A stretch of DNA of 64,000 nucleotides from Spiroplasma endosymbiont of 'Nebria riversi' (GTDB taxonomy: Bacteria; Bacillota_I; Bacilli_A; Mycoplasmatales; Nriv7): positions 868,001 through 932,000 of the forward strand of contig NZ_CP065193.1 of the NCBI RefSeq assembly GCF_018831625.1. The letters are read 5' to 3'. The notes beneath the pieces were generated by a model. It was given only the letters and a program-made list of their open reading frames with translations, made no database searches and was not told where the DNA came from. This document shows, in pieces, positions 3,107 to 56,841 of the stretch. Position numbers and translations under genes: made by a program. How positions within the stretch are numbered: the stretch's first letter is position 1; each line of letters starts with the position of its first letter.

Positions 3107-3130
3107 ATTATTTTATAATTTATCATCCCT

Positions 3131-3388
3131 TTTTAAAAAAAAAGAAAAAATAATCATTTACTATAAATTATTTCAATATTCAAATTAAGTATATATTTAT
3201 TATGTAGATTTTTGTTGTAAAAAATTATTTTAATGTTGGTTTTATAACCTTTTATTAAGATTATGTTTATTAATATTAAATATTTTGTTTTATTACTTAT
3301 TTTTCAAATAAAAAGGTAATCAATTTTTAGTTGTTTTTCTTTCAAAATTATTTATACCTTTTCCTACCCAACAAAACTTTATGCGTCC
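3131..3388 (+). repeat. Element C, copy lacking its left terminus
   Basis: It matches the 282-bp unit of 38484-38765 from the TTTTTAAAAAAA tract to the terminal CAAAACTTTATGCGTCC, but the GGTCGCG end is missing. It is non-coding. It is followed by about 50 bases resembling the A right end, then element B2. Confidence 0.65.
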
Positions 3389-3440
3389 AAAATAAAATTA
3401 ATAAATATTAGTTAAAATTTAATAAAATTAATAATTTTAT

Positions 3441-6225: not shown

Positions 6226-7008
6226 TTATCTTTTTGAAAGTAAGTATTTTAAAATTTCCGAAGATAAATTAGCACCACTAAGATTATTTAGTATAGTGCG
6301 TCCTTGATAAATTAAATCTGTCATTGAACCATTATATTTGGATGTAATCCCAAAACTAAATCCTCAATGTGGTAATGTTGTCGATTTTTTTTCATTACCT
6401 CATGCGTTATATGTTTTAGGATTTATTGTTAAGATAAATTCATTATTTTGATTTGTTTTATCTAATTTAAAGGCACAAGGGTTAACTAAATCCATTGGTG
6501 AATTCATTACAGGTTTACCAACAAAAATATATTGAGCGTATTCTTTATACATTGCTATTCATTTATCAGCTTGTTGTTGTCTTCAATCGCTTTTACTTTC
6601 TAGGTAAGGCGTGAAAACTAACTTGGTAATAAATAAAAATTTTATTTCGTTTCATCATAGTTGTTTTGTTATGGATTTATTGCGAAATCTTGGTGGCATT
6701 TCATTGCCATTAGTATAATATAGAAAATCACTTTTTTCTTTATTTAATATGGGATATTTATCTACGGTGCTATTAAAAGTTAAGTAATGATTAGAGCAAA
6801 AAGCATTACCTTTTTGATAATCTAATCGGATTATTTATGTAGTTTTTGTTACGGGTGATCATTCATTAAATGATGCTTGGGCGCTATCCGCTATCAATTG
6901 GTTTAATATATTTGGCTGCTTGCTCCAAATTAATATTTAAGTTTTTCTTAAATTTAAAAGTTAATTGATTACTTTCTTCATTGTTTAATCACCCTTTAGT
7001 ATCAATAT
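6226..7008 (-). pseudogene. Conserved hypothetical protein, decayed and 5'-truncated
   Basis: On the minus strand with TGA as Trp, recognisable coding sequence runs from the element C boundary to the TAA at 6226. Segments include a stretch starting GWLNNEESNQLTFKFKKNL, then AQASFNEWSPVTKT, then a long open part starting DYQKGNAFCSNHYLTF and ending LSSEILKYLLSKR. The segments lie in different frames (break near 6880) with an in-frame TAA near 6835. The start is cut off by the repeat at 7009. I do not recognise the family. The spacing and Trp/Tyr-rich content look like a real former protein. It converges on ffh. Confidence 0.5.
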
Positions 7009-7290
7009 GGACGCATAAAGTTTTGTTAGGTGGGTAAAGATTTGAATAATTTTAAAAGAAAAGTAATTACAATTTAATTATCATTTTATTTTAAAAATAA
7101 GTAATAAAGCAAAATATTTAATATTAACAAACATAATTTTAATAAAAGGTTATAAAAACAACATTAAAATAATTTTTTACAACAAAAATCATACATAGGA
7201 TATATATACTTAATTTGCATATTGAAATAATTTATAGTAAATGATTATTTTTTCTTTTTTTAAAAATACCTAAGAAAACTAAACGCGACC
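7009..7290 (-). repeat. Element C, complete 282-bp copy
   Basis: Starts GGACGCATAAAGTTTTGTTA and ends CTAAGAAAACTAAACGCGAC; the two ends are an imperfect inverted repeat of about 22 bases (16 matches by eye). No ORF. It is the reverse complement of 38484-38765 and the same length, so it looks like a MITE-type unit. Confidence 0.7.
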
Positions 7291-7402
7291 TCGTTTTATA
7301 AAGGATTGTTCCATATTGAGTTGGATGGGTTACAATAAGTTGGACCATATTTATATGGACTTTTAAATAAAATAAAATTATTAAGAAAGTAGGAAGATAA
7401 AA

Positions 7403-7645
7403 ATGGCGAAAAACTCATATTCAAATGAATTTAAAAAACAAATTGTCACGCTTTATCAAAATGGAAAAAGCATTGTTGAAATTATTAAAGAATACGGAAT
7501 TTCAAAATCAGCCATATATCAGTGAATTGAAAATTTTAATAATTTTGGGTCATTCAAAGTGCAAGATAATAGCACTGTCAAAGAAAATGAATTAATTTAC
7601 TTGCGAAAAAAAACCAACAATTACGAATGTAAAATGACATTTTAA
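7403..7645 (+). pseudogene. IS3 OrfA (helix-turn-helix), truncated by frameshift
   Basis: It starts [15 protein letters not shown] and continues with the helix-turn-helix region [19 protein letters not shown]. The intact D OrfA is 91 residues (see 14792). One A is missing near 7610, so the C-terminal coiled-coil segment that normally ends ALIIGKK is lost. A GAA-to-TAA change nearby would also end the original frame. Confidence 0.75.
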
Positions 7646-13325: not shown

Positions 13326-13330
13326 AGAAA

Positions 13331-13530
13331 TAATAAAACAAAATATTTAATATTAACAAACATAATTTTAATAAAAGGTTATAAAAACAACATTAAAATA
13401 ATTTTTTACAACAAAAATCATACATAGGATATATATACTTAATTTGCATATTGAAATAATTTATAAATAATTTATAGTAAATGATTATTTTTTCTTTTTT
13501 TAAAAATACCTAAGAAAACTAAACGCGACC
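13331..13530 (-). repeat. Element C, 5'-deleted copy
   Basis: It matches the last 200 bases of 7009-7290, including the terminal CTAAGAAAACTAAACGCGAC, plus a 13-base tandem duplication (AATAATTTATAA). The GGACGCAT end is missing, replaced by B3. Confidence 0.65.
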
Positions 13531-22118: not shown

Positions 22119-22133
22119 AAAGGGGGTGATTAT

Positions 22134-22376
22134 ATGTTAATAAATTTCTTAGTAGGAGAAAATACATCAGGAGCAATTACTGGTGAACAAGCGGTTACTA
22201 ACTTATGAAAAGCATTAATTAAAGCATTTGGTAATATTTGGACTGATATTATTGGTGGTAATATGCCAAATGTCGTTAATTTTTTTGCTACATATTGAGT
22301 TTTCTTGCTTGGCGTGATTATTGGTTTATTTTTAATCGCTTTCAAAATGTTTGAAAAATTAATGCCTGGCAGATAG
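22134..22376 (+). CDS. Plectrovirus major coat protein
   Basis: 80 residues after a strong AGAAAGGGGGTGAT ribosome site. N-terminus MLINFLVGENTSGAITGEQA, amphipathic helix (VTNLWKALIKAFGNIWTDII), then a membrane span (WVFLLGVIIGLFLIAFKMF) and basic tail. Same length and layout as 9145 and 56445, but the N-terminal half differs a good deal, showing that P1 belongs to a different lineage from P0/P4. Confidence 0.8.
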
Positions 22377-22407
22377 TAATAAAAATAAAGAAAGTGTGAT
22401 TTAAGTG

Positions 22408-23397
22408 ATGCTATTGTTTAAGAAAATAAATTTAAGATTATATGATTTTGTCGGTTTAAATCGCACTTTATTTATTATTGCGTGATTCTATGGTGCGATT
22501 TTGCATTATTATAATCCTCAGAGTTGACGAATGTTAGTTGATATTATTTATTTATTAATTGCTTTGTATATTTTGTATACTAAAATTTCTCATTTCTTTG
22601 CTCGTCTTAGTTTTATTAATTTCTTATTAAATTCACCCTTAAATTTAATAATTGGTGCCTTAGGGACTGGGAAAAACGCTTTAATGGTTTTAGCTCCTTA
22701 CTTATTAAGCGATTGAAAAATGATTTCTACTTCTCCGATTACCAATAAACAAATGCTTTCATTAGGACATATGTCGCTTTTAGATTATAACTATCCGATA
22801 TTAGAAGAAAAGCATTTGCTGTTATGAGATGAAACCAACTTATTTTTAGAAGGAACGGATTATAAAGAAAATGATAGAGTAACTCAAGGTTTACAAGAAT
22901 ATTTTGCTTCAGCACGGCAATTTACCCATATCGTATTAGCGGGCGGGCAACGAGCCGAACATATATGAGTTAAAGTTCGCGATATTGCGAATTCAATAAT
23001 TGTTGGCATTAGAAAAAAACCGGTTAGTATTTTTCGTTCTTATTTGCAAGTTATTTACGGTACTTTTAAATCGGTAAGCGAATACGAGCAATGACGTTTA
23101 ACTCTGATTAATGCTAAAAATGATAAAAAAGGTCGCAAAATCAAGTATCGTAGCGTTCCGGAATTAAACATTTATTTCTTTAAATTGAAAATTCCGATGT
23201 CAATTTTAAATCTTTACGATAATAAATATTTATCATTCTTGCGTGAATTAAGTAATCGTGCTTTGAATGATAATTATCAACATAAATTTTGAAATGATAA
23301 TGTAATGGATATTGAAGCATTAGAATATTTAAAAATGGAAAAATTCAGTAAGATACTTACTAAGTTAAAAAATAATCTGAAGAAGAAAAACAAGTAA
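22408..23397 (+). CDS. Zot-like assembly ATPase of plectrovirus
   Basis: 329 residues. Two N-terminal membrane spans (LFIIAWFYGAILHYY and MLVDIIYLLIALYILY), then the P-loop LIIGALGTGKNALM, a Walker-B-like LLLWDETNLFLEG, and TRP-like sensor region HIVLAGGQRAEHIWVKVRDI. This is the pI/Zot family that drives filamentous-phage extrusion at the membrane. Basic C-terminal tail (LKKKNK). It aligns along its whole length with the P4 protein at 55434-56420. Intact. Confidence 0.9.
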
Positions 23398-23410
23398 AGG
23401 AGTTTAAAAA

Positions 23411-23737
23411 ATGGAAAACTTAGAAAAAATGGCTAGTTTGATTGGCGATATGTTTTATAAAGTTTTTGATTTAATTTGAACTTTAACCATTCCTGGAACA
23501 GATATTCGCATTATTATTTTTCCACTAATTATGCTTGTGATAAATCTTGTAATTGGTGGCATTTTAGGTATTCATATTGAACGACCAAAAGTTGGTTTTT
23601 GTAAAAAATATCGAAAATCAGTTGCTAATTGAGGAACTAAGAAAAAATCATCTAGTGGTCCGATTAAGAAATTTAGTGGTAATAGCCCTAAAAACAGACC
23701 GTGAGTTAACCAACACGGACGGCGAATAAAAAGGTAG
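23411..23737 (+). CDS. Plectrovirus 108-aa membrane protein with basic tail
   Basis: MENLEKMASLIGDMFYKVFD, LIWTLTIPGTDIRIIIFPLI and one clear membrane span (MLVINLVIGGILGIHI). A strongly basic Ser/Lys/Arg-rich C-terminal half follows (KKYRKSVANWGTKKKSS). The first 40 residues match the first part of the P4 protein at 55068-55430, which lacks the basic half. Probably a minor virion or assembly protein. Overlapping regulation with Zot (13-base gap, AAAGGAG). Confidence 0.65.
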
Positions 23738-23747
23738 GTTTTAGAAA

Positions 23748-24002
23748 ATGTTTAAATTAATAATATTATTTATTCTTGTTTCTGTTTTTTCTATTTTTGC
23801 TTTAGGTGATTTTTTAGGTTTATGAGCATATGTGCGTGAAGGTTTAGAATATTTTAATAAAGTTTTATCAAAAAATATTAAAATTTTAGATTTGTTTAAA
23901 CCAATGATAAGGTTATTTTCTCAACATCCGATTTTCCAAATCTTAGGAACGATTTGTATTTTATCAACAATATATTTAATTTTAAGAGGACCTACTAAAT
24001 AA
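23748..24002 (+). CDS. Plectrovirus 84-aa membrane protein
   Basis: N-terminal signal-like span (MFKLIILFILVSVFSIFALG), a central amphipathic part (AYVREGLEYFNKVLSK), then KILDLFKPMIRLFSQHPIFQ and a second span. Its C-terminal half matches the C-terminal half of the P4 fusion at 55068-55430. Ten bases separate it from the preceding gene. Likely minor coat or assembly protein. Confidence 0.65.
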
Positions 24003-24027
24003 AAAATATTTTAAAAGGAGTTAAAAA

Positions 24028-24411
24028 ATGAAAAAGTTAAAGAAAATATTAAGTATTAAATGATTTAAAAGCGTTTTAGGTTTTATGGATTTTTTTATTA
24101 TATTTCATACTGTTATGGTTGTAATTTGAGTGTTTTTAACAAGAATTAGAACTAATATAGATGGATTTTTTAAAGATTTTATATTATTTGATTTTCAAAA
24201 TGTATTTCTTAAAGTGTATTTTTGATTATTAATGATTTATTTGTTAATAATTGCTATTAAGTTATTTATTAGGGGTTATTACTTTAATAAAGTTTTTAGA
24301 AAGCATCAAACGCAAGATGTTAATTGTGAATGTCCAAAACATAATCATTATAAATTTTCTGATGCTTTTAAAGCGATAAAAAATAGTTTTAAGACGTGAT
24401 GAAATGCATAA
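24028..24411 (+). CDS. Plectrovirus 127-aa membrane protein
   Basis: MKKLKKILSIKWFKSVLGFM, two membrane spans (FFIIFHTVMVVIWVFL and VYFWLLMIYLLIIAIKLF), then a Cys/His-containing cytoplasmic part (CECPKHNHYKF) and SFKTWWNA. The ribosome site is AAAAGGAG. Positional counterpart of the decayed genes at 54400-55044. The end overlaps the ORF1 start by eight bases. Confidence 0.65.
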
Positions 24412-25998
24412 GATTATTTCTTGATTTATTATAATGTTTATTAGTTTGGTGCCATTAGGGGCTTTCTTTGATACAAAACAACCATCAAAACATAATATAG
24501 AACAATCCTTTATGAAGCGAGAAAAACGAGCAACTAATACTAGTCAATGTGGCAATAGTTGCGAATTAGAATTTTCTAATATTTATAATAGTTTTTTAAT
24601 TCCCAGCAAAATTGGCGGAAACCAGAGAAAGATAACGAGCAACCGTTACCTACGGAAATAAATAAAAATGATGGTGAGTATGATTATACTCAGTTTCAAG
24701 ATAAATTAGATTATTTGATGATACAACGCCGAGATTTTGATAAATTTAATTATAGTTATTTATATTGAGTTCCGATTTTTAATTTCTTTGATGATAATTT
24801 TAAATATATGAGTGAAATTTCAATTAAATTAAATGGTTTTAAACAAAATAGTAAATTTAGTTTAAGTCGCAAAAATTCATATCCGCCTGGTTTCATTGAA
24901 AAAGTTATTTTTAGAAAACTTTCCTTTTCTATTTTTGGTGATGTTATTACTATAAAAACTGAGCACGGTAGTATTGTGGGCAATAATGAGTTTTTAGAAA
25001 ATGGTAAATCACTTTGAAAATCTGGCTCGCGAACAAGTTTTGGAGAAGATTTTATTAATACCTTTTTTGGACAAGTTAATTATTATGATAATACCTTCCA
25101 TTTTTTACGATATGATGACAAATTAAAAGTTGATTTTAAAGATTTTGTGCTTTATTATCAAAAAGATTTAACTATTAGTTTTATTAATGAATTATTTAAC
25201 AAAATTTATAAAGTTTTAGGTGAGTTTTTTGTATAATTCTTTTATGCGAGTTTTGATATGGATGCTTCTACTTATGTAGAATTAGATTACAAAGGGACGC
25301 AACAAATTCCTAAAAATGTTTTACAAACGGGCTTTTTCTATCGCTCCTTAATTACTTTTTATCCTAAACAATATTTAATTAATTTTGATTCAACAATAGA
25401 AAATAGTAAGAATATGATTTTTCGTTCGTATTTTTTTGTGAAAGATAAACAAATTGCTAATGATTTTAAAACTGGTAAAAGTTCTTATCAAATAGATTTT
25501 AATGTGTTAAAAGCATATGATAACCAATTATGAAATGCTACTAGTAATAAACTGCATTTTTACAACGCCAAAGTTGATGTGATGTATGGAATTAATATTT
25601 TTGCGCTAACTTTTCCGCTATATAAAAAACAAAGTGAAAGCACTGAATATCATTATTCTTTATAAGATTTTAATATTTTGAATTCAACAGCTTTTATTGG
25701 TGGCGGAATAAGTGGCAATATGGATGACTTAATTCCGGCGCCCAACTGTTCTTATTGAGGTTTATTTAGTGCGATATCTTGTGGTATTCAACACGCCTCT
25801 GTTAGTGTGCTAAATTGATTACTTGGTCTTTCTGGAATTAATCTTTTAATTCGCCCTATTGCTGACATTGCTAAAACAACGATTAATTTTACTAAAACTG
25901 CCTTTCCGGTGTTTGAAGTCATTCCGGCATTTCAGATGTTATTTGAATTTGTAGTGCCGTTAGCAATCTTATTAATGATATTAAAAAAGTTCTCTTAA
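24404..25998 (+). pseudogene. Plectrovirus ORF1 (attachment-type protein), deletion plus two stops
   Basis: Starts MHKIISWFIIMFISLVPLGA (signal peptide), then NIEQSFMKREKRATN, a basic cleavage-like site, then the N-terminal domain begins (LEFSNIYNSFLIPSKIGG). A deletion near 24620 removes most of that domain and shifts the frame. The middle domain continues (EKDNEQPLPTEI, QFQDKLDYLMIQRRDFDKF, KNMIFRSYFFVKDKQIAN). Stops at 25234 (CAA to TAA) and 25663 (TAC to TAA) follow. The C-terminal membrane anchor remains (FEFVVPLAILLMILKKFS). The layout of signal peptide, external domains and C-terminal anchor is that of a pIII-like adsorption protein (inference from architecture). Confidence 0.75.
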
Positions 25999-26051
25999 AT
26001 ATTGCCAATATTTTTTATAATATAATTCCTTTGAAAGGAGGATTTTTATTT

Positions 26052-26465
26052 ATGTGAAAATTTTTATCAGCTTTAAATTTAGTATGTATAATGTTTATTT
26101 CTGGGTGTAATAAAAATAGCAATGATTTAAAAAAATATGATTTAGAATTTTCTAATATTTATAATAGTTTTTTAATTCCCAGCAAAATTGGCGGTGGGGC
26201 TAAAATTAAATTTCAAGATAACATCGATTTACCACTTGAAATTAAAAAAACTCGCATTTTTAGTTTATCTCTTGGTAATAAAAATAAAGATTGAATTAAT
26301 TTTTATAAAAATAATGGTGTTAAAAAAACTTACGATGATTTTAGTTATTTAGATTTAGATTTTGGTTATGAGATTTCTGAGATAATTAATGTTAAGATAA
26401 CATTTACTAAATCAATAGGATTATCTTATAGTATAACTTCCTTCTCTGCCAAGATGCCTCATTAA
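26052..26465 (+). CDS. Phage-encoded lipoprotein resembling the ORF1 N-domain
   Basis: 137 residues. MWKFLSALNLVCIMFISGCN has the lipobox ISGC. The mature start, YDLEFSNIYNSFLIPSKIGG, is the same as the surviving start of the ORF1 N-domain in this prophage. It ends SITSFSAKMPH, like the domain end ITSFSAEMP in P3 ORF1. So the lipoprotein is a membrane-anchored copy of the attachment domain. AAAGGAGG ribosome site; promoter-like TATAAT at about 26019 (ATAATATAATTCC). It may block superinfection by occupying the receptor or binding virions (inference). Confidence 0.7.
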
Positions 26466-26540
26466 TTAGCAATTTTAATAAATATGTTTGAAAATCGTAT
26501 TAAAAAATACGATTTTCTTAATTTAAGGAGTTTAAAAAAA

Positions 26541-27641
26541 ATGAAATATATTATTTCCCAAGCTGATTTAGCAGATTTAAAAGCAAAAGTACAAAGCTGA
26601 TTAATTGCTAATTGCCGTAATCCTTATTACTATAAAACTAAAAAACGCATTACTGCCTATTTAAATTTATGTACTTATTTCTATATTGAAGAAACTACTT
26701 TAACAAAACTTATTAAAAAATATTTTAAGGGTGCAACAAAAACTTTTTATCGTTGGGCACAAAAAATTATGACTGCTTATTATTCTGACAATTTAAATTT
26801 GTTATTGTTTAAAACTACAAAGCCACAAAATCTTAATTATCAATATAGTTTAAATTCTCGCAAAAAAGTATGTGATTTATATTTTGATTACAAAAATCTT
26901 CAAGCCGGTGGAATGTGGTCTTTATTTAATAATTTAAAAATCGGTTTTCACGATGTTGAAAATTCAAAAATTCCAAAAAATATCAAAACTTTTTATCGCT
27001 GAATTAAATCTGACTTTCGTTGGAAAGAATTAAAACAGCAAATCAAACAAACAAACCTCCATTTTAAGCGTTATGACGTCTCCGAGATTGATATTTTACA
27101 AATGGATGCCAAAATAATTACTACATTAAATTTTCCGGTTGATAAAAAATATTACATTTATGATTTCATTGACGAAATAACGCGGATAGTATTTGGTTAT
27201 GTTTATGATAGTTTAGGAACCAATAACGCAATTAATGCCCTGCAAAGAGCAATGAAAGATTTTAGCGCGCTTGGCATAACAATTAAACGCCTTCGTACTG
27301 ATAATGCCCCTGAATTTACTACTACTAATTGAAGCAATAAAAAAACATACAAAGTAAAAGAAAGGCCTTTTACAACCTTTCTTTCAAAAAATGGAATTGT
27401 TCACGAAACCACGCCGATTCGCTCGCCACAATCAAATGGCAAAATTGAACGATTCCATCAACATTATACCAAATTATTTTATGCTAAGGATAAAAAACTA
27501 AATCAAAATGAAATTCAACATTTCTTAAATCAATATTATTACTATTACAACTTTGAACGTCGTCATTTATCTTTAAACACTAAAACTCCATTTCAAGCCT
27601 TGAAACATTTTTTTTATTTTGTCAAAATAAAAAACCAGTAA
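26541..27641 (+). CDS. Plectrovirus DDE transposase (SpV1 ORF3-type)
   Basis: 366 residues, intact with TGA as Trp. N-terminal Tyr-rich region (NPYYYKTKKRITAYLNLCTY) then a helix-turn-helix-like part. The rve/DDE core shows LQMDAKIIT, YDFIDEITRIVFGY, RLRTDNAPEF and SPQSNGKIERFHQHY. SpV1 phages are known to carry an IS30-like transposase gene thought to allow integration. The last codons (FYFVKIKNQ) differ from P2 and P3, so the stop codon is supplied by flanking chromosomal DNA. Only intact transposase among the prophages here. Confidence 0.85.
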
Positions 27642-30302: not shown

Positions 30303-30764
30303 ATGCGAAAATTTTTATCAGCTTTAAATTTAGTATGTATAATGTTTATTTTTGGATGTAGTAAAAATAGCAATGATTTAAAAACATATAAATTACAATT
30401 TTATAAAATTGGTAAAAGTGCTTGAGTAATTAGTGGTTATGGTCAGGGTTCATATCATTTAGAAATTGATGCTACTGATTTAAAGATTTCTAGTGATTTT
30501 GATATTCAACTAGGTAATGGCGATTTTGTTCAAAGGCCAGCCCTTCAATTATTTGTTGACAAAGATAGTGCTGGTTATAATCAAATTAATAACTTTTATC
30601 GTTCTAATGGTTCTTATAAGTCCAAGCCTTTTAAAGAATTTTATTTTATTGATAATTTAATTAATTTTAAAGTATTTCTTAATAAAAAAGTTCCACAAGG
30701 TCTTAACACGAAAATGTTTCATATCACTTCATTCTCAGCAGAAGTACCTAATAAAAAAAATTAG
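30303..30764 (+). CDS. Phage-encoded lipoprotein, divergent mature part
   Basis: 153 residues. The leader MRKFLSALNLVCIMFIFGCS matches the P1 lipoprotein leader, with lipobox IFGC. The mature part differs: KNSNDLKTYKLQFYKIGKSA, then DLKISSDFDIQLGNGDFVQR, ending FHITSFSAEVPNKKN. The shared ends (YxLxF at the start, ITSFSAE at the end) show the same domain family with a diverged middle. AAAGGAGG ribosome site. No intact ORF1 remains in P2 to pair with it. Confidence 0.65.
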
Positions 30765-36981: not shown

Positions 36982-37062
36982 AAAGTGTCCAAAAAAGGGT
37001 AGCCATACCAGTTTATAATTGATTAATAAACAAAATAGAGATTTTTGTGAGGTGTAAAATTA

Positions 37063-37896
37063 ATGAAGCAATACATTATCTTAGTGGACTCAGCAACTGG
37101 TTATGATGAAGAAAAAGCAAAAGAACATAATATGGCATTTGTCCCTTTAATGATAAATGTTAACAATAAAACTATTGCTGACAATAATAAAGAAATTACT
37201 ATTGATAAATTTTATAAAATTTTAGAAACTGAACCAATTAAAACCAGTCAAACGCCACCAGGAATTTTAAAAGAAAAATGAGATGAACTACTACAAGAAT
37301 ATGAACAAATTCTTTTCTTTCCGATTTCTTCGCATTTATCGGGACAATATCAAAGTGCAATATTACTAGCTCAAGATAATGCTTATAAAGACAAAGTCTA
37401 TATAATTGATAGCGAAGCAGTTGGCGACATTAATAAAGAAATGATTAACCGCGCAGAACTATTTTTACAAGAACGACCTATTAATGAATTACAAGGTTTT
37501 ATTGATGAACAGAAAACAAAATATTGTGCCTTCATTCTTCCATATCAATTAGATACATTGGTTCGTGGGGGCAGAATTAGCAGTTCTGCTGCTACCCTAG
37601 CTAATTTATTGAAAATTAAACCAATCCTAGAATTTAATGGTTTTATTGATAAATTTGATAAAACCAGAACATTTAAAAAAGCAATTAAAGAGGTTTTAAA
37701 AGAAATCAAAAAGCGCTATGACAGTGCTGGCGAATTAACAATTATGCATTCATTATGTGATATGGAATTAAAAGAAGAAGTAATTAAAATCATTACTAAA
37801 GAAAAATTTACAATTAAGCATATGAGTTTAATATCTAATGTTATTGCTGCTCACACCGGATACAATACATTTGTACTTGTATATTGAATAAAGTAA
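37063..37896 (+). CDS. DegV-family fatty-acid-binding protein
   Basis: 277 residues, typical DegV length. MKQYIILVDSATGYDEEKAK has the DegV start (VDSA). Then come IKTSQTPPG with the Ser/Thr-loop that contacts the lipid carboxylate, ILFFPISSHLSGQYQSA, VYIIDSEAV and TLVRGGRISSSAATLANLLKIKPIL. DegV proteins bind fatty acids and, as FakB, present them to FakA kinase for phosphorylation, which fits a cell importing host fatty acids. GAGGTG precedes the ATG. Intact, followed 11 bases on by a second, broken degV. Confidence 0.92.
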
Positions 37897-37907
37897 AGGA
37901 TAAAAAA

Positions 37908-38483
37908 ATGTCCAACACAAATAAGAAAATTGCTGTTATTGTTGACTCATCTAGCAACCTTGATCCTACAACCCTAAAAGAAAAGAATATTAATATCATT
38001 GCTTTATTAATAAGTTTTGAAGATAGAACTGAAATTGAAGATACCACTAGTGATATTAAAAAATCTAATTTTTATGCTCGTGTTAAAAATGGTGAATATA
38101 CTAAAACTAGTCAATCATCACCGGGAAAACTAATGAGCTTATGGCGAAAACTATTAGCTGAAGGAAATGATGAAATTATCTTTATTCCGATTGCTAAAGG
38201 ATTATCTGGTCAATACCAAAATGTTTATATGCTATCATAAGAAAATGAATTTAAAAACCGCGTTCATATTATTGATACTAACGGTGTGCCGCTACATTTA
38301 ATAGTACATTAGCAATTAAAGCTAGTGAAATTGTAGCTAATGGTGGCAACATTAATGATATTAATAAAATGGTAACCCAAGTTAAAAAAATAGTTTAATT
38401 TACATTATCCCTGAAGATATCTCGCGACTTTCTAAAGGCGGCCGTGCTAAATCTGTTGTTCGCTTCCCTAATAAGTTTAATCC
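37908..38483 (+). pseudogene. Second DegV-family gene, stops and truncation
   Basis: MSNTNKKIAVIVDSSSNLDP, TKTSQSSPGKLMSLWRKLLA, EIIFIPIAKGLSGQYQNVYM. TAA at about 38237, then frame changes. Late pieces (SRLSKGGRAKSVV) correspond to the RGGRI region of the intact paralogue. Element C at 38484 cuts off the C-terminus. In tandem with the intact degV, so a duplicated FakB-type pair of which one has died. Confidence 0.85.
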
Positions 38484-38765
38484 GGTCGCGTTTAGTTTTC
38501 TTAGGTATTTTTAAAAAAAGAAAAAATAATCATTTACTATAAATTATTTCAATATGCAAATTAAGTATATATATCCTATGTATGATTTTTGTTGTAAAAA
38601 ATTATTTTAATGTTGTTTTTATAACCTTTTATTAAAATTATGTTTGTTAATATTAAATATTTTGTTTTATTACTTATTTTTAAAATAAAATGATAATTAA
38701 ATTGTAATTACTTTTCTTTTAAAATTATTCAAATCTTTATCCACCTAACAAAACTTTATGCGTCC
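38484..38765 (+). repeat. Element C, complete 282-bp copy
   Basis: GGTCGCGTTTAGTTTTCTTA at the left and CAAAACTTTATGCGTCC at the right, imperfectly inverted. Inserted between the dead degV2 and P3 ORF1; both neighbours are truncated at its edges. No coding capacity. Confidence 0.7.
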
Positions 38766-40500
38766 ATAAAACAAAAACGAGCCACCAATCCCGGTCGATA
38801 TGGTAAAAGTTGTTAGTTGGAGTTTGCTGAGATTTTAAATAGTTCTTTTGTTAATACAAGTGTTAGTAACTATTTAACGGGTTGATTACAAATTAATAGT
38901 GTTAAAAATCAATTACCCTCTGATACTGGATATTCTGATTTCTATATTGTTTATAACGACGGTAAGGGTAATATTATTTCTAGTGTTTTTGATTTTTATA
39001 AAAAAAATGGAGTTTTAAAAAATAAAACTTATAGTATTGATAAAATCGTTAATGTTAAAATAACAATTGCTAGTATTCCTGGTTTTAATTCAGATAATTT
39101 TTGAATAACTTCATTTTCGGCGGAAATGCCTTCTTTACCACAAAAAGATAACGAACAACCATTGCCTACGGAAATAACTGAAAAGGATGGTGAATATCAG
39201 TATAATCAGTTTCAAGATAAACTTGATTATTTAATGATACAACGGCGAGATTTTGATAAATTTAATTATAGTTATTTATATTGAATACCCATTTTTAATT
39301 TCTTTGATAATAATTTTAAATATATTAGTGAAATGTCAATTGAATTAAATGGTTTTAAACAAAATAGTAAATTTACTTTAATTCGTAGTTTTGAACCTGA
39401 AAACTCGTTATATTTTTTTGGTAGCTTAGAATTTTCTAGTTTTAGCGATGTTTTTAGAATTGAAATTTCTTTAGGAATGGTTACTTTTTATTTGAATGAT
39501 GAACAATTAATTAAGTTTATTTTACTTGATTGTTGAACTGAAGATTTTATTAATGTTTTTTTTAGACAAATTAATTATTATGGTAATACTTTTTATTTTT
39601 TACGCTATGATAACAAATTAAAGACTGATTTTAAATATTTTATGTTTTTTTATTTAAAGGATTTATCGAATCAGTATTATTTCAGTTTATTTGATAAAAT
39701 TTATAAAGTTTTAGGTGGTTTTTTTACACAATTCTTTTATGCGGGTTTTGATATGGATGCTTCTACTTATGTAGGATTAAGTTATAAAGGAATGTAAGAA
39801 ATTCCTAAAAATGTTTTACAAACGGGGTTTTTCTATCGCTCATTAATTACTTTTTATCCCAAACAGTATTTAATTAACTTTGGTTCAACAATCGAAAATA
39901 GTAAGAATATGATTTTCCGTTCTTATTTCTTTGTTAAAGATAAACAAATTGCCAATGGTTTTAATATTGGTGAAAGTTCTTATCAAATAGATTTTAATGT
40001 GTTAAAAGCCTATGATAACCAATTATGGAATGTTACTAATAATAAATTGCATTTTTATAATGCTAAAGTCGATGTGATGTATGGAATTAATATTTTTACG
40101 CTAACTTTTCCGCTATATAAAAAGAAAAATGAAAGCACTGAATATCAGTATTATTTATACGATTTTAACATTTTGAATTCAACAGCTTTTATTGGTGGCG
40201 GAATAAGTGGTAATATGCATGAATGATGACTTAATCCCAACACCTAACTGTTCTTATTGAGGTTTATTTAGTGCAATATCGTGTGGTATTCAGCACGCTT
40301 CTGTTAGCATGTTAAATTGATTACTTGGTCTTTCAGGGATTAATCTTTTAATTCGCCCCATTTCGGATATTGCCAAAACAACAATTAATTTTACGAAAAC
40401 TGCCTTTCCGGTGTTTGAAGTTATTCCTGCATTTCAGATGTTATTTGAATTTGTAGTGCCATTAGCAATCTTACTAATGATATTAAAAAAGTTCTCTTAA
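38766..40500 (+). pseudogene. Plectrovirus ORF1 (attachment-type), 5'-truncated with stops
   Basis: It begins within KQKRATNPGRYGKSC, the basic site seen as MKREKRATN in P1, then TAG at 38814. The N-domain is complete here: LEFAEILNSSFVNTSVSNYL to ITSFSAEMPSLPQ. The middle domain follows (EQPLPTEI, FQDKLDYLMIQRRDFDKF, QFFYAGFDMDASTYVG). TAA at 39795 replaces Gln, and a four-base insertion near 40220 shifts the frame before the C-terminal anchor (FEFVVPLAILLMILKKFS). It shows the most complete domain order of ORF1 in the window: signal, basic linker, N-domain, middle domain, Gly-rich hinge, C-terminal anchor. Confidence 0.8.
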
Positions 40501-40553
40501 ATATTGCCATTATTTTTTATAATATAATTCCTTTGAAAGGAGAATTTTTGTTA

Positions 40554-40604
40554 TGTGAAAATTTTTATAAGCTTTAAATTTATTATGTGTAATATAGTTT
40601 TTTT
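40554..40604 (+). pseudogene. Relic start of the usual phage lipoprotein
   Basis: MWKFL, TAA, ALNLLCVI: the leader seen intact at 26052. It has the AAAGGAG ribosome site and upstream TATAAT of the P1 and P2 genes but stops at once. The functional lipoprotein starts 67 bases later with its own ribosome site. Confidence 0.7.
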
Positions 40605-40620
40605 GAAAGGAGAAGTTTTG

Positions 40621-41037
40621 ATGTATAAAAAATTTTTAATTGCGTTAAGTTTAGCAAATATAATGTTAGTTTCTGCGTGTAATTCTACTAATAGTAAAAT
40701 TGAAAAAAAATATAATTTGGAGTTTGCCGAGATTTTAAATAGTTCTTTTGTTAATACAAGTGTTAGTAACTATTTAACGGGTTGATTACAAATTAATAGT
40801 GTTAAAAATCAATTACCCTCTGATACTGGATATTCTGATTTCTATATTGTTTATAACAATGGTAATGGTAATATTATTTCTAGTGTTTTTGATTTTTATA
40901 AAAAAAATGGATTTTTAAAAAATAAAACTTATAGTATTGATAAAATCGTTAATGTTAAAATAACAATTGCTAGTATTCCTGGTTCTAATTCAGGTAATTT
41001 TTGAATAACTTCATTTTCGATGGAAATGCCTCATTAA
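40621..41037 (+). CDS. Phage-encoded lipoprotein nearly identical to the ORF1 N-domain
   Basis: 138 residues. MYKKFLIALSLANIMLVSAC has lipobox VSAC. From YNLEFAEILNSSFVNTSVSN to ITSFSMEMPH it is almost the same as ORF1 residues encoded at 38817-39130; I count about nine base differences in some 315. So the lipoprotein and the attachment-protein domain of this phage are a matched pair. Strong AAAGGAGAAG ribosome site. A membrane-anchored decoy or receptor blocker for superinfection exclusion is a reasonable hypothesis, not shown. Confidence 0.75.
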
Positions 41038-41111: not shown

Positions 41112-42186
41112 ATGAAATATATTATTTCTCAAGCCGATTTAAAAGCAAAAGCACAAAGTTGATTAAGTGCTAATTGTCGTAATCCTTATTACTATAAAAC
41201 TAAAAAACGCATTACTGCCTATTTAAATTTATGTACTTATTTCTATATTGAAGAAATTACTTTAACAAAACTTATTAAAAAATATTTTAAGAATGCAACG
41301 AAAACCTTTTATCGTTGGGCAGAAAAAATTATGACCGCTTATTATTCTGACAATTTAGATTTGTTATTGTTTAAAACCACAAAACCACAAAACCTTAATT
41401 ATCAATATAGTTTAAATTCTCGCGAAAAAGTATGTGATTTATATTTTGATTACAAAAATCTTCAAGCTGGCGGAATGTGGTCTTTATTTAATAATTTAAA
41501 AATCGGTTCTCACGATATTAAAAATTCAGAAATTCCTAAAAATATCAAAACTTTTTATCGTTGAATTAAATCTGACCCTCGTTGAAAAGAATTAAAACAG
41601 CAAATCAAACAAACTAAACGCCATTTTAAGCGTTATGAAGTATTCTGATATCGGTCTTTTACAAATGGATGCCAAAATCATTACTACATCAAATTTTCCG
41701 GTTGATAAAAAATATTACATTTATGATTTCATTGACGAAATGACACGCATAGTATTTGGTTATGTTTATTATAGTTTAGGAACTAACAATGCTCTTAATG
41801 CCATGCAAATAGCAATGAAAGATTTTGGCGAACTTGGCATAACCATTAAACGCCTTCGTACTGACGACGCTCCTGAATTTACTACTACTAACTGAAGTAA
41901 TAAAAAATCTTACAAAGTAAAAGAAAGGTCTTTTACAACCTTTCTTTCAAGGAACGGAATTGTTCACGAAACCACACCGATTCGTTCGCCACAAAGTAAC
42001 GGTAAAATCGAGCGGTTTCATCAACATTATACCAAATTATTTTATTCCAAGGATAAAAAATTAAATCAAAATGAACTTCAACATTATTTAAACAAATATT
42101 ATTACTTTTATAATTTTGAACGCCATCATTCATCTTTAAACAGTAAAACGCCTTTTCAAAAATTGCAAAAATTTTTAACAAAGTAG
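41112..42186 (+). pseudogene. Plectrovirus transposase with single frameshift
   Basis: MKYIISQADLKAKAQSWLSA to RHFKRYEVF is open, then one added base near 41645 shifts the frame. The DDE core continues: LQMDAKIIT, RLRTDDAPEF (Asn to Asp change) and NGKIERFHQHY, ending FQKLQKFLTK. The N-terminus lacks three codons relative to P1. Confidence 0.8.
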
Positions 42187-42288: not shown

Positions 42289-42909
42289 TTAATTATTTAC
42301 AATTTTAGCAAAATCTATTTCTAAAACAGTTGTTAAGTGTCTATTATTAGTTCCGGCACTATAAAGATAACTATAAACATAAATATTTAATTTTAATTCT
42401 TTATTATTTTCAATTCATAACCCTATTTCAATATCACAATCAACATCATATGAAGCAAATCAATATTGATTTGCTTTAACTAAAGTTCTTCAATATGCTT
42501 TATCACTATTATTGTTATGATTTATATCGATATTATTTAAATTAATTTTAATATCTCTAAATTTATCTTTCCCTACATTACCAAAAGTTTCTGGTGAATT
42601 TTCTTCTCCATAAGTATTAATTATAATGTAAAGATATTTTTCTATAAATGAATTTCAATCAGAAGCATATTTAGTAAAATCTACTATATTTAATGTTTTC
42701 TTATCATTAAACTTTAAAGTATAACTTCAACTAGTATCTCCAGTTCTACTATAATAATAATCATATTTTACGATTATATCATTATTAGCTTCTACTAAAT
42801 AAGGATTTGTTGCTCGTTTTTCTCGTTTCATAAAAGATTGTTCTATTTTTCTTGGGGCATTGTCAACAATTCCTGTCGTTCCACGCCCCGCTATTGTTAT
42901 TGTTCCTAA
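42289..42909 (-). pseudogene. Secreted surface protein with phage-like basic linker, start removed by IS3
   Basis: About 206 residues remain. It starts in the family leader (LGTITIAGRGTTGIVDNAP); the first codons are lost to the IS3 fragment at 42911. It then reads IEQSFMKREKRATNPYLVEA, the same linker as phage ORF1 at 24404 (IEQSFMKREKRATN). The body is Tyr/Trp-rich: VKYDYYYSRTGDTSWSYTLK, YASDWNSFIEKYLYIIINTY, FRDIKINLNNIDIN and LWIENNKELKLNIYVYSYLY. It ends EIDFAKIVNN. The frame is open throughout. Probable secreted, proteolytically matured surface protein before disruption. Confidence 0.65.
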
Positions 42910-47910: not shown

Positions 47911-48213
47911 GGTCGCGTTTAGTTTTCTTAGGTATTTTTAAAAAAAGAAAAAATAATCATTTACTATAAATTATTTCAATATGCAAATTAAGTATATATT
48001 TCTTATGTAGATTTTTGTTGTAAAAAATTATTTTAATGTTGGTTTTATAAGCACTTTACTTAGGTTTTATAACCTTTTATTAAGATTATGTTTATTAATA
48101 TTAAATATTTTGTTTTATTACTTATTTTTCAAATAAAAAGGTAATCAATTTTTAGTTGTTTTTCTTTCAAAATTATTTAAACCCTTCCCTACCTAACAAA
48201 ACTTTATGTGTCC
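47911..48213 (+). repeat. Element C, complete copy with small internal duplication (303 bp)
   Basis: Same ends as 38484-38765 (GGTCGCGTTTAGTTTTCTTA ... ACTTTATGTGTCC). An extra block of about 20 bases (GCACTTTACTTAGGTTTTAT) near 48050 repeats neighbouring sequence. It separates nfo from the helicase gene. Confidence 0.65.
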
Positions 48214-48228
48214 TAAGAGCGAATAACC

Positions 48229-53866: not shown

Positions 53867-54382
53867 TTAATTGTTGTCTTTTTTTGTATTAAATTTTTTA
53901 ATATGAAATTTGTTTGAACCGGGATAACTATATTCTTGTATTGTTATTTTTACATCTTTAATTTTTTTAGCAGTATAAAAATATTCAATATTTGTTTTTT
54001 GAAAATCTTTATCAAAAAATTCTCTTTCTTCTGGGGTGCTGTTTTCTTTTTTATAATTATAAATTTCTTTAATTTCTTTAAATACCGTTTCATTGGTAAA
54101 GACAGCAAACCCTCTGGTATTTTCTCCATAATTTTTTATTTCCAAAGGTAATTGCTCTTTTACTGAGTCAATATTAATATATACTGGGTCATCGCCTTTT
54201 TTATACAATGATTGTAAATAACTGTTATTTATTTCTGAAAATTTTAAGTCATATTTTTTATATTGAGTTTCTCTTTTATTTCTAACTGGTTGCACTGCCG
54301 TTTTCTCGTTGTTAATGTTTTGAGGAATGGTAAAAATGTTATTGAAACTAATAATTAATACGGTAAATATTTTCATAAACAT
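53867..54382 (-). CDS. Plectrovirus ORF1, signal peptide and N-domain only
   Basis: 171 residues from the ATG at 54382 (AAGGAG 8 bases upstream). MFMKIFTVLIISFNNIFTIP signal peptide, then a basic linker (QPVRNKRETQYKK), then the N-domain: YDLKFSEINNSYLQSLYKKG, PVYINIDSVKEQLPLEIKNY and KDVKITIQEYSYPGSNKFHI, ending TKKDNN. Compared with P3 ORF1, the middle domain and C-terminal anchor are lost, so a soluble secreted domain would be made. No lipobox Cys, so it is not the lipoprotein paralogue. The N-domain sequence differs from P1, P2 and P3, showing diversification. Confidence 0.65.
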   Translation of the reverse strand: MFMKIFTVLIISFNNIFTIPQNINNEKTAVQPVRNKRETQYKKYDLKFSEINNSYLQSLYKKGDDPVYINIDSVKEQLPLEIKNYGENTRGFAVFTNETVFKEIKEIYNYKKENSTPEEREFFDKDFQKTNIEYFYTAKKIKDVKITIQEYSYPGSNKFHIKKFNTKKDNN

Positions 54383-54399
54383 TTTTATCACTCCTTTTT

Positions 54400-55044
54400 A
54401 AAATATTTTATTTTTCATTGTTTTTTTAGTTTTGATTTTTTTAATAAGTCATTCAATACCACAATTTATAATTACAGCTATTGTCATGCACATATATATC
54501 TAAATACCCTAGTATCATAAGTGAAATTAATGCTTCAAATTTTTCATATAATAATTTCAAATCATTAATTTCCAATTTTAAAAATGAAATGAAAAAGATA
54601 TTAATCATAAAAATGTAAGATACAATTCTCCATCAATATTTTTTTAAAGAATTAATTAATTTGTTTCATTTCATTTTTCAAAGCTCTTTTTGCTTTAATT
54701 TTTTGAATAATAAAGCGGATTAATTTTTCAAATTTAATTGCAAAATATATTGCCCTGCCTCATCAAAAAACAAATATTCCTGCGAGCATAATACCACTAT
54801 TGAACTTGACAAAGAAATCAACCATCTATTTATTCATAAAATCATTAAATTCAGCACTTGTTCCGGTTATTCATTTAGTATCGATTACTGTTAATGCACA
54901 AGTTAATAAACTTATAAAGATGAAAATAATACTTAATGATACTTTTAACAACTGTTTTTTAAAATAATTTTTAATCCTTAATTTTAATGGCATTTTTTCT
55001 TTTGAATTATCTTTTTTAAATAATTTTATTAAAATCTTTTTCAT
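54400..55044 (-). pseudogene. Plectrovirus membrane protein(s), decayed
   Basis: MKKILIKLFKKDNSKEKMPL, then a span (VSLSIIFIFISLLTCALTV), then TAG near 54829. A second part restarts MVDFFVKFNSGIMLAGIFVF and ends KAKRALKNEMKQIN. A third part (SLKKYWWRIVSYIFMINIFF) continues in another frame. It occupies the place of the 127-aa gene at 24028 in P1. Ribosome site AAAGGAG before 55044. Confidence 0.55.
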
Positions 55045-55067
55045 TTTAATTCTCCTTTCATATTTTT

Positions 55068-55430
55068 TTATCGTCCTTTAATCACAATAAATAAGGCAAT
55101 AAGTACACAAGTAATGCCAAGAATGGTAAAAATTGGGTGTTGCGAAAATGTTCGTGCCATTGGTTTAAATAGTTCTAAAATTGTTAAATTACTAGTAATA
55201 AATTTTTGAAAATTGGTAAGGCCTTTGCTAATATAGTTTGTTAAAGTTTCAAAATGACTACCAGCCAATAATCCAAGAATAATTGCCATAAGAAATTCTA
55301 CAGCCTGCGTTAAGAATAAAGGAAATATTAGTTGAATTTTTTTTCCTGGTACTTCTAAACTTCAAATTAAGTCAAAGACTTTATAAAGCATTTGGGCGAG
55401 AAAGTCGGCCATTTTTGCGAGATTTTCCAT
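55068..55430 (-). CDS. Plectrovirus 120-aa membrane protein, fusion-like
   Basis: MENLAKMADFLAQMLYKVFD, LIWSLEVPGKKIQLIFPLFL matches the N-terminus of the P1 protein at 23411. From TNFQKFITSNLTILELFKPM, ARTFSQHPIFTILGITC and a final span to IKGR, it matches the C-terminus of the P1 protein at 23748. So one gene here corresponds to the outer halves of two adjacent P1 genes. At least two membrane spans. Four bases before the Zot stop region, same operon. Confidence 0.7.
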
Positions 55431-55433
55431 TTT

Positions 55434-56420
55434 TTATTGTTCCTTTTCTTTCATTTTTCTTAAAAATTTGCTAAATTTATCCATTTTTAAGTATTCCAAA
55501 TCTTCTAAATCAATTGCTATGTCGGCATAGTATTTATCTTTATAGTCGGGAGTTACTTTTGAATTTAAGTAATCTCTTAAAAATGCTAAGTAAAGAGAAT
55601 TGTGGGTGTTAAGTATTGGTAGAGGAATTTTTAGTTTAAAAAAATAAATATCAAGTTCAGGAATATCACGATATTTAATGTGACGACCTTTTTTACTATT
55701 TTTAGCATCAATTAAGGTGTTTCGTCAGCGTTCATATTCTTCAATGCTCGTAAAGGTGCCATAGATGACTTTTAAGTAGGGACGAAAAATATTAACTGGT
55801 TTTTTACGAATTCCCACAATCACATTATTAGCAATATCACGAACTTTAACTAAAATATGTTTATCTCTTTGACCGCTAGCAATCACAATATGACCAAAAT
55901 GGCGCGCCAGAGCAAAATACTCTTGAATACCAGTTTCTTCATTTTTGGTATTATTTTTTTCTCAATCAGTTCCTTCTAAAAATAAGTTGGTTTCATCTCA
56001 CAAAAGTAAGGTTTTGTCTGGCAATACTGGATAATCAAAGTCTAACAATCCCATATGCCCTAAACTTAATTTTTGGGTTTCTAGTAATGGAAATGTTGAT
56101 GCGATATGATATTTTTTCTTTTTTAGTAATTTTGATGCGTATACTAGAAAAGCGGTTTTTCCAGTTCCTAATGAACCAATAACAATATTTAATGGTGAGT
56201 TTTTTAAGAAGTTAATAACTTTGTTAATTTGTGTTAAATTACCGATTTTAAAAATAAAAATTAAAATACAACCTGCTAAAAATAAATAGCTTACAATGTT
56301 CTTAAAATAACCGTTGTAAATATATCAAATTGCTCCGCAATGTCATAAAATTAAAAATGAGGTGCGATTCAATTCAATAAAATGGTTATTTTTTTCTATT
56401 ATTCATTTGCAAAATTTCAT
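55434..56420 (-). CDS. Zot-like assembly ATPase of plectrovirus
   Basis: 328 residues. N-terminal spans (SFLILWHCGAIWYIYN; SYLFLAGCILIFIF), P-loop NIVIGSLGTGKTAFLV, Walker-B-like LLLWDETNLFLEGTDW, and HIVIASGQRDKHILVKVRDI. The C-terminus (LEYLKMDKFSKFLRKMKEKE) is basic. Length and motifs match the P1 Zot. Intact. The N-terminal 50 residues are nearly those of the P0 fragment at 9412. Confidence 0.9.
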
Positions 56421-56444
56421 CTTGCGCCTCACTTTATTTTTTTG

Positions 56445-56687
56445 TTAGCGGACCGCTCCAAGTAATTTTTCAAACATTTTAAAGCAAATAAAGAATATTG
56501 CCAAAATAAATGGAAAAATGAATATTCAGTAATCAGCAAAGAAGCTACCGACTTGTGGCATATTAACAGCAATAATTTCCCACATTTTAGCAAACGCTGT
56601 TATAATCGCATTTCATAATTTAGTCATTGCGTCACTAGCTGTTATCTTTGTTACTGCTGGTGCTTCTGTTAAGAAAGTTCCAATCAT
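56445..56687 (-). CDS. Plectrovirus major coat protein
   Basis: 80 residues, MIGTFLTEAPAVTKITASDA, amphipathic middle (MTKLWNAIITAFAKMWEIIA), membrane span (WIFIFPFILAIFFICF) and basic tail. Nearly the same as P0 (9145). GAAAGGGGGTGAT ribosome site. Confidence 0.8.
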
Positions 56688-56706
56688 ATAATCACCCCCT
56701 TTCTTT

Positions 56707-56841
56707 TTAAAACATTCATCATTTATATTCAAAGTTTTTCTTAAATTTGTTAAAACCACGATTAACCTTAACGCGATTGTATTTTTTCCTAATTAATTTT
56801 GAATTTCTTTGGGAATGCATCACGATTTAACTTCTTGACAT
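56707..56841 (-). pseudogene. Plectrovirus Arg-rich ORF with early stop
   Basis: MSRS then TAA (a Tyr codon in P0), then IVMHSQRNSKLIRKKYNRVK and on to KWWMF. An internal ATG (MHSQRN) could restart translation of the basic region. Confidence 0.7.

What the first reader, a model, noticed from the sequence alone, without database searches (positions are those of the whole stretch)
38766..41037. Phage lipoprotein is a near-identical twin of the attachment-protein N-domain (P3)
The lipoprotein at 40621 and the N-terminal domain of ORF1 (38817-39130) differ at about nine bases in some 315. One is tethered to the host membrane by a lipid, the other sits behind a signal peptide and basic linker in a C-terminally anchored phage protein. 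A self-matching lipoprotein could bind the receptor or newly made virions and exclude related phages, or promote release. I know of no description of this pairing in plectroviruses.
Basis: partly seen in the sequence, partly recalled or inferred. Interest (0 to 1): 0.88.

Follow-up and report, generated by a model that had tools for sequence, protein, structure and literature searches.

The report
Phage attachment domain copied as lipoprotein
Rod-shaped Spiroplasma phages carry, just after the gene for their presumed host-attachment protein, a small membrane-anchored lipoprotein that is little more than an exact copy of that protein's most variable domain, and in 86 of 91 phages tested the two copies are the same type, which suggests a self-matched system that shuts related phages out of an occupied cell.

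Summary
In the window, 306 of 315 bases match between the ORF1 N-domain (38817-39131) and the lipoprotein (40717-41031). ORF1 is a broken pseudogene here. The lipoprotein is intact.

Across five genomes of this bacterial lineage, 37 of 38 prophages carry the same domain type in ORF1 and lipoprotein (own-pair identity 0.86-0.99; about 0.30 to other prophages; 16 types; chance 3).

The classical Spiroplasma citri-type plectroviruses (SpV1-C74, SpV1-R8A2B, SkV1) have the same design with a different cassette family. Their lipoprotein gene is not annotated as a CDS, lies on the opposite strand, and its cassette shows no detectable homology to the window's. There 49 of 53 pairs match (median identity 0.99 against 0.22; 35 types; chance 1.9).

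Cassettes move between phage backbones, yet both copies change in lockstep. Best explanation: the lipoprotein is the phage's own receptor-binding domain, tethered to the host surface to mask the receptor (type-specific superinfection exclusion). Matching and anatomy are shown; receptor binding and exclusion are inferred. GenBank records mark the duplicated DNA in two phages only as bare repeats, and I found no description of a matched lipoprotein. SVTS2 and SVGII3 lack it.

The parts
40621..41037 (+). Lipoprotein gene (138 aa): leader with lipobox (Cys codon 40678-40680), short linker, cassette copy, stop
   Evidence: intact ORF in table 4; best hit
40717..41031 (+). Cassette copy inside the lipoprotein (L copy)
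   Evidence: 97.1% nt identity to 38817-39131; type 8
40605..40612 (+). Ribosome-binding site (GAAAGGAG) of the lipoprotein gene
   Evidence: read directly from sequence
38817..39131 (+). Cassette copy in ORF1 (O copy, N-domain)
   Evidence: HMM hit; type 8
38769..38816 (+). Remnant of ORF1 basic linker (KRATNPGRYGKSC) ending in an in-frame TAG; upstream signal peptide lost at a repeat junction
   Evidence: compare intact ORF1s
39132..40500 (+). ORF1 body and C-terminal membrane segment, pseudogene (TAA 39795-39797, frame break about 40207-40247)
41112..42186 (+). Downstream ORF3-type transposase remnant (frameshifted)
   Evidence: the intact copy at 26541-27638 hits integrase core families
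24401..25995 (+). Second prophage copy (w25): broken ORF1; its cassette is deleted after the first 24 residues (24557-24628)
26055..26465 (+). Lipoprotein of prophage w25 (type 2), intact
30306..30764 (+). Lipoprotein of prophage w30 (type 3), intact; ORF1 N-terminal part deleted
53867..54391 (-). ORF1-like N-terminus (signal peptide, basic motif RNKRETQYK, diverged cassette 53882-54256) of another plectrovirus relic

Best explanation
The lipoprotein is a lipid-anchored, stand-alone copy of the host-recognition cassette of the phage's ORF1 protein. Made by an infected or lysogenic cell and displayed on the outer face of its single membrane, it occupies the receptor (or entry site) used by that cassette type. 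Virions with the same cassette, including the cell's own progeny, then cannot adsorb again: type-specific superinfection exclusion by receptor masking. Because it works only if both copies match, a phage that gains a new cassette must also change the lipoprotein. Copying of the cassette between the two loci, plus selection, keeps them identical while types diversify. SHOWN: pairing, type matching, lockstep change, intact lipoprotein frames, anchor + linker + cassette anatomy, recurrence with a cassette of no detectable homology in opposite gene orientation. INFERRED: ORF1 is the adsorption protein, the cassette binds the receptor, the lipoprotein is surface-exposed and blocks infection.
For: Type matching in 37/38 prophages of the window lineage (permutation mean 3.1, max 11 of 20,000) and 49/53 of the citri lineage (mean 1.9, max 9). 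Own-pair identity 0.86-0.99 against about 0.30, and median 0.99 against 0.22. Cassette lengths match within pairs (rho 0.99). The lipoprotein contains nothing but leader, linker and cassette. Cassettes are hypervariable (16 and 35 types) inside an otherwise conserved ORF1, as expected of a host-recognition region. Cassette type is uncoupled from the ORF1 body, yet both copies switch together, even between backbones only about 71% identical. When a type drifts between species both copies drift equally (0.73/0.73, 0.85/0.85, 0.88/0.88). The two lineages share the design with cassettes that are not detectably homologous (hhalign probability 0.1%) and opposite lipoprotein gene orientation. Purifying selection is present (omega about 0.6). 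Lipoproteins are intact in most loci where ORF1 is dead. Precedents: the phage T5 lipoprotein Llp blocks the T5 receptor FhuA (PMC9586334); filamentous Pf4 uses structural proteins including pIII for exclusion (PMC11436027). Integration of SVTS2 DNA is associated with resistance of S. citri to SVTS2 (Sha et al. 1995, as cited in PMC8140453).
Against: No functional data. ORF1's role as attachment protein is not demonstrated here (Pfam DUF3688, function unknown, for the citri lineage; no family for the window lineage). Prophage types within a genome are not clearly over-dispersed as exclusion would predict: window lineage P=0.68, citri lineage P=0.011 only after removing near-identical duplicates. 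The isolate SpV1-R8A2B carries a mismatched pair, while S. citri R8-A2 holds an intact orphan lipoprotein of its ORF1 type. The resistance-associated phage SVTS2 lacks the lipoprotein. Small phage genes ORF5/ORF9 are also well preserved in decayed prophages, so lipoprotein retention is not unique.
Confidence: 0.55

Rival explanations
1. Self-recognition: the cassette binds itself, so the lipoprotein captures virions of its own type at the cell surface (decoy, tether for release, or kin receptor) rather than masking a host receptor.
For: The partners are near-identical in about 50 types, which is what homotypic binding with type specificity would need; the exact sequence match rather than mere functional match fits.
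Against: Would require homophilic binding to be maintained in dozens of very different cassette sequences and in two cassette families with no detectable homology. No structural relative supports it.
Confidence: 0.15
2. Recombination by-product: gene conversion between two nearby copies keeps them identical and matching itself has no function.
For: The DNA itself is homogenised (dS 0.067 and 0.043). Shared conserved edges flank the variable core, especially in the citri lineage. One locus (L136) has a perfect 1,115-nt inverted repeat replacing the lipoprotein leader, showing that the repeats recombine.
Against: Does not explain why the second copy is nearly always an intact lipoprotein in two lineages with opposite gene orientation and different cassettes, or omega <1. 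A conversion-only model gives no reason to keep the leader, and mismatched intermediates are rare (5 of 91).
Confidence: 0.15
3. Silent-cassette archive: the lipoprotein stores an alternative attachment domain used to switch ORF1 specificity (shufflon or tail-fibre-inversion-like).
For: Inverted arrangement, conserved cassette edges and a recombinant locus (L136) in the citri lineage; mismatched pairs exist (L137, L158, L178, R8A2B).
Against: In 86 of 91 cases the stored copy equals the active one, so it stores no new information. The window lineage has direct repeats, whose recombination would delete ORF1. No invertase gene is annotated in the phage records read.
Confidence: 0.07
4. The lipoprotein is an assembly or export partner of ORF1, or a surface adhesin serving the bacterium in its arthropod host, and matching reflects that need.
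For: Lipoproteins are common Spiroplasma surface antigens; the SVGII3 record marks an adhesin P89 pseudogene downstream of its ORF1.
Against: Type specificity is not needed for an assembly role. Lipoproteins stay intact where ORF1 is dead, so they are not merely its partner. Adhesin service would not require matching the ORF1 of the same phage.
Confidence: 0.08

Closest known systems
SpV1-C74, SpV1-R8A2B and SkV1-CR2-3x (Vespertiliovirus, Plectroviridae)
   Same: ORF1 followed by a lipoprotein carrying an ORF1 cassette copy. SkV1 and C74 pairs match at 97.6% and 95.5% nt. Same gene order ORF2-ORF5-ORF9-ORF1-ORF3.
   Different: Lipoprotein is on the opposite strand, convergent with ORF1. The cassette family is not detectably homologous and lies around residues 180-270 of ORF1 rather than 60-165. 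It is not annotated as a CDS; two records mark only a repeat. R8A2B's pair is mismatched and C74's lipoprotein is frameshifted in the record.
Phage T5 Llp
   Same: Phage-encoded lipoprotein that inactivates the phage's own receptor to exclude superinfection (PMC9586334).
   Different: Per the paper, Llp is periplasmic, acts from inside on the FhuA plug and reshapes the loops allosterically; it is described as a separate small lipoprotein, not as a copy of the receptor-binding protein pb5. Here the lipoprotein is a copy of the (presumed) binding domain and would act outside a wall-less cell.
Superinfection exclusion by filamentous-phage structural proteins (Pf4 pVII/pVIII/pIII; M13/fd pIII N-domains, the latter from general knowledge)
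   Same: A virion protein made in the infected cell blocks further infection.
   Different: There the virion protein itself acts; here a dedicated second gene carries only the recognition cassette with its own membrane anchor.
Retroviral receptor interference by Env-derived proteins (suppressyn, Refrex-1, Fv4; from general knowledge)
   Same: A stand-alone copy of the virus's own receptor-binding domain blocks the receptor.
   Different: Those are domesticated single relics in animals; here it is part of the phage genome, tracked cassette by cassette in dozens of types.

Membership tests
Plectroviridae (window phage) | Homologous ORF2 (Zot-like assembly ATPase) | tested here: met
   window 22405-23394 matches ORF2 of SkV1, SVGII3, SVTS2, C74 and R8A2B at 27-31% identity, E down to 2e-18
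Plectroviridae (window phage) | Gene order small coat-like ORF - ORF2 - ORF5 - ORF9 - ORF1 - transposase | tested here: met
   window 22119-27638 against C74 and R8A2B annotation
Vespertiliovirus / Pfam DUF3688 (Spiroplasma phage ORF1-like) | ORF1 belongs to PF12461 | tested here: not met
   C74 and R8A2B ORF1 hit PF12461 at E<1e-250; the window-lineage ORF1 has no hit up to E=1. It is a separate plectrovirus lineage.
Bacterial lipoprotein | Leader with lipobox ending in Cys | tested here: met
   MYKKFLIALSLANIMLVSAC here; comparable leaders in nearly all lipoproteins of both lineages. Lipidation itself not tested.
Superinfection-exclusion lipoprotein (Llp-like) | Blocks infection by the same phage | not testable with these tools
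   needs an infection assay
Superinfection-exclusion lipoprotein (Llp-like) | Sequence homology to a known exclusion protein | tested here: not met
   no Pfam, PHROG or NCBIfam family. Works-like claim only.
Invertible or silent-cassette diversification system | Stored cassette differs from the expressed one; recombinase nearby | tested here: not met
   stored copy equals expressed copy in 86/91 pairs; no invertase annotated

The most novel reading that the evidence does not exclude
Plectroviruses carry a type-matching immunity system made from their own attachment domain: the recognition cassette is duplicated as a surface lipoprotein, and the two copies evolve in concert through dozens of types that are swapped between phages, so every phage excludes exactly its own type. 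The system arose at least twice with unrelated cassettes, or is so old that homology has been lost.
Probability: 0.5. Interest if true: 0.9.

Novelty: new variant of a known kind. Interest (0 to 1): 0.85.

Why it matters
It turns decades-old observations (very many integrated plectrovirus copies in Spiroplasma, resistance associated with integrated viral DNA in S. citri, an unexplained repeat marked in two phage records) into a concrete, testable mechanism. If exclusion is confirmed, each Spiroplasma genome holds a readable list of phage types it is protected from, and the cassettes become tools for finding the unknown receptors of these phages. It would also be a clear phage counterpart of receptor interference by viral Env fragments, with built-in concerted evolution in about 50 allele types.

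Tried and rejected
Chance similarity: rejected (E=1e-153; permutations). Simple recent duplication in one prophage: rejected, since the pairing is general in two lineages. Pseudogene remnant rather than gene: rejected, lipoprotein frames are intact in most copies (12/14, 8/8, 5/6, 6/6 and 7/7, which may undercount broken copies because it requires a readable leader). Known protein family: none for the window lineage in Pfam, PHROGs or NCBIfam. Fold relatives: none significant in PDB for either cassette model (best E=0.055, Cdc13 OB fold, probability 0.85; nothing useful); the models are of moderate confidence (pLDDT 72.6 and 78.4). Homology between the two cassette families: not detected. Over-dispersion of types within genomes as a signature of exclusion: inconclusive. 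Selective retention of lipoprotein against ORF1 in decayed prophages: real against ORF1 but shared with ORF5/ORF9, so not discriminating. IMG/VR scans: nothing for the window lineage and one partial citri-lineage locus, not followed. GTDB-contig scan: no window-lineage relatives, S. phoeniceum copies for the citri lineage.

Full report
WHAT IS THERE. The window comes from a Spiroplasma-like mollicute (TGA read as Trp; window = bases 868001-932000 of a 1.41-Mb contig in a 1.44-Mb assembly). It contains several degraded plectrovirus prophages. ORF1 itself is dead in this copy: in-frame TAG directly before the domain, TAA at 39795, a further frame break, and its 5' end lost at the edge of a repeat that occurs elsewhere in the window. 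The lipoprotein gene (40621-41037) is intact, with a ribosome site and a lipobox.

THE PHAGE. ORF2 of the better-preserved copy (22405-23394) matches ORF2 of all five annotated Spiroplasma plectroviruses (27-31% identity, E down to 2e-18), and the order coat-like ORF, ORF2, ORF5, ORF9, ORF1, transposase is that of SpV1-C74. ORF1 of the window lineage is not in Pfam DUF3688, unlike SpV1 ORF1, so this is a separate plectrovirus lineage. Intact ORF1s are about 620 aa: signal peptide, a conserved basic motif (KREKRATNPSQCG), the variable domain at residues 60-165, then a well-conserved body and a C-terminal hydrophobic end.

TEST OF PAIRING, WINDOW LINEAGE. I searched the window's genome and four others of the genus, fetched the regions and extracted every copy of the domain with an iterated HMM. 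In 38 prophages both copies could be compared. Identity of a lipoprotein to the ORF1 domain of its own prophage is 0.86-0.99 in 37 of them, against a median of about 0.30 to the ORF1 domains of the others. The domains fall into 16 well-separated types plus one short fragment and one outlier (between-type median 0.31, maximum 0.60). 37 of 38 prophages carry the same type twice, where shuffling gives 3.1 on average and never more than 11 in 20,000 trials. Lengths of the two copies range from 102 to 125 residues and agree within pairs (rho 0.99). In the core of the domain only 4.2% of positions differ between the two copies; fixed differences sit at the edges, where each copy joins its own leader or linker.

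TEST OF PAIRING, CITRI LINEAGE. The three Vespertiliovirus genome sequences in the phage collection also have a lipoprotein directly downstream of ORF1, not annotated as a CDS in these records, on the opposite strand. Its cassette corresponds to ORF1 residues of about 180-270. In C74 and SkV1 the duplicated stretch is recorded only as 'inverted' or 'repeat_region'. Of 53 pairs, 49 match in type; median identity of the cassette core is 0.99 to the own ORF1 and 0.22 to others; there are 35 types among 60 lipoproteins; shuffling gives 1.9 and at most 9 matches (a stricter anchored subset gave 25 of 27). The exceptions are L137, L158, L178 and the laboratory phage SpV1-R8A2B itself. SVTS2 and SVGII3, from other plectrovirus genera, have no such twin.

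HOW THE TWO COPIES EVOLVE. Within pairs the DNA is nearly identical: dS 0.067 and dN 0.039 in the window lineage, dS 0.043 and dN 0.027 in the citri lineage, so the copies are homogenised recently at DNA level, with mild purifying selection on the protein. The ORF1 body is usually about 91% identical in DNA whatever the cassette type, and in 17 of 28 prophages the closest body belongs to a different cassette type. Cassettes are therefore exchanged between phages, but at two separate places at once. The clearest cases are S. citri/G172 (L131/L177) and S. citri/G175 (L140/L190): cassettes 91-95% identical in both places on ORF1 bodies only 71-72% identical. When the same type differs between species, both copies differ by the same amount (0.73 and 0.73; 0.76 and 0.76; 0.85 and 0.85; 0.88 and 0.88) while each phage keeps its own two copies nearly identical. 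Conserved sequences at the cassette edges, shared by both copies, would let homologous recombination copy a cassette from one place to the other. Locus L136 shows that such recombination happens: a perfect 1,115-nt inverted repeat has replaced the lipoprotein leader by the ORF1 N-terminus.

WHAT THE LIPOPROTEIN IS MADE OF. In both lineages it is a lipoprotein leader, a linker and the cassette, with only a few residues added at the end. Models of two lipoproteins show a small folded domain of mixed strand and helix after a disordered N-terminal segment (mean pLDDT 72.6 and 78.4); no solved structure matches significantly. The two cassette families are not detectably homologous to each other (hhalign probability 0.1%), so the same design has been reached with different material and opposite gene orientation, or is too old for homology to be seen.

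MECHANISM. A hypervariable cassette in a surface protein of a phage is most simply its host-recognition domain (inference; ORF1's function has not been shown). Spiroplasma has no wall or outer membrane, so a lipoprotein is exposed on the cell surface (established knowledge of Mollicutes). A lipid-anchored copy of the recognition domain should occupy the receptor that the matching virion needs, which explains why the copy must be of the same type and why nothing but anchor, linker and cassette is retained. I put this at 0.55. Rivals are self-recognition (0.15), recombination without function (0.15), an assembly or adhesin role (0.08) and a silent archive (0.07). Gene conversion is probably the means by which copies are kept alike even if exclusion is the reason.

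CHECKS THAT DID NOT DECIDE. If exclusion works, types should rarely repeat within a genome. After removing near-identical duplicates this holds in the citri lineage (1 pair against 5.5 expected, P=0.011; the removal itself favours the result) but not in the window lineage (16 against 15.2). In decayed prophages the lipoprotein is usually intact where ORF1 is broken, but small genes ORF5 and ORF9 are also well preserved. SpV1-R8A2B has a mismatched pair and C74's lipoprotein is frameshifted in its record; S. citri R8-A2 holds an intact orphan lipoprotein of R8A2B's ORF1 type. With so few isolates this is only suggestive either way.

COMPARISON WITH WHAT IS KNOWN. T5 Llp is a phage lipoprotein that inactivates the phage's receptor, acting from the periplasmic side (PMC9586334). 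Filamentous Pf4 uses structural proteins, including pIII, for exclusion (PMC11436027). Resistance of S. [quoted passage not shown] 1995, cited in PMC8140453), but SVTS2 lacks this lipoprotein, so that case needs another explanation. Searches of the held open-access library found no description of a matched lipoprotein in plectroviruses; older subscription papers on SpV1 were not available.

VERDICT. I rate it a new variant of superinfection exclusion, with the possibility that it is a distinct type-matching principle.

Noticed in passing
L098 3039-3440 (-), L100 3277-3695 (-), L222 3499-3978 (-): Lipoprotein genes in the reference sequences of SpV1-R8A2B, SpV1-C74 (frameshifted in the record) and SkV1-CR2-3x that are not annotated as CDS there.
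   Followed up: yes
L136 (S. citri R8-A2T chromosome 1301500-1305400): Perfect 1,115-nt inverted repeat in which an ORF1 N-terminus plus cassette replaces the lipoprotein leader: a recombination product between the two cassette copies.
   Followed up: partly
window 53867-56759 (-): Relic of another plectrovirus (coat-like ORF, ORF2, ORF5/9-like) whose ORF1 N-terminus has a signal peptide, a basic motif RNKRETQYK and a diverged version of the cassette, then stops.
   Followed up: partly
window 42289-42831 (-): ORF starting MKREKRATNPYLVEANND: the conserved basic motif of plectrovirus ORF1 linkers occurs in front of an unrelated secreted-looking protein; it may be a processing or export signal.
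   Followed up: no
L223 (SVGII3) 6699-7637: The record marks a P89 adhesin pseudogene downstream of ORF1, the slot where other plectroviruses have the lipoprotein.
   Followed up: no
L046 about 2427 and 3452; HMM hits in L056, L064, L093 ORF1: Second, partial copies of the cassette domain, some inside the same ORF1 reading frame, suggesting tandem domain duplication or rearrangement.
   Followed up: no
window 38501-38768, 7006-7273, 3130-3392, 13328-13513, 47928-48216: A repeat of about 268 bp occurs five times in the window and forms the left junction of the broken ORF1.
   Followed up: no
window 37045-38500: DegV-type gene followed by a second, frame-broken DegV-like copy just upstream of the prophage remnant.
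   Followed up: no
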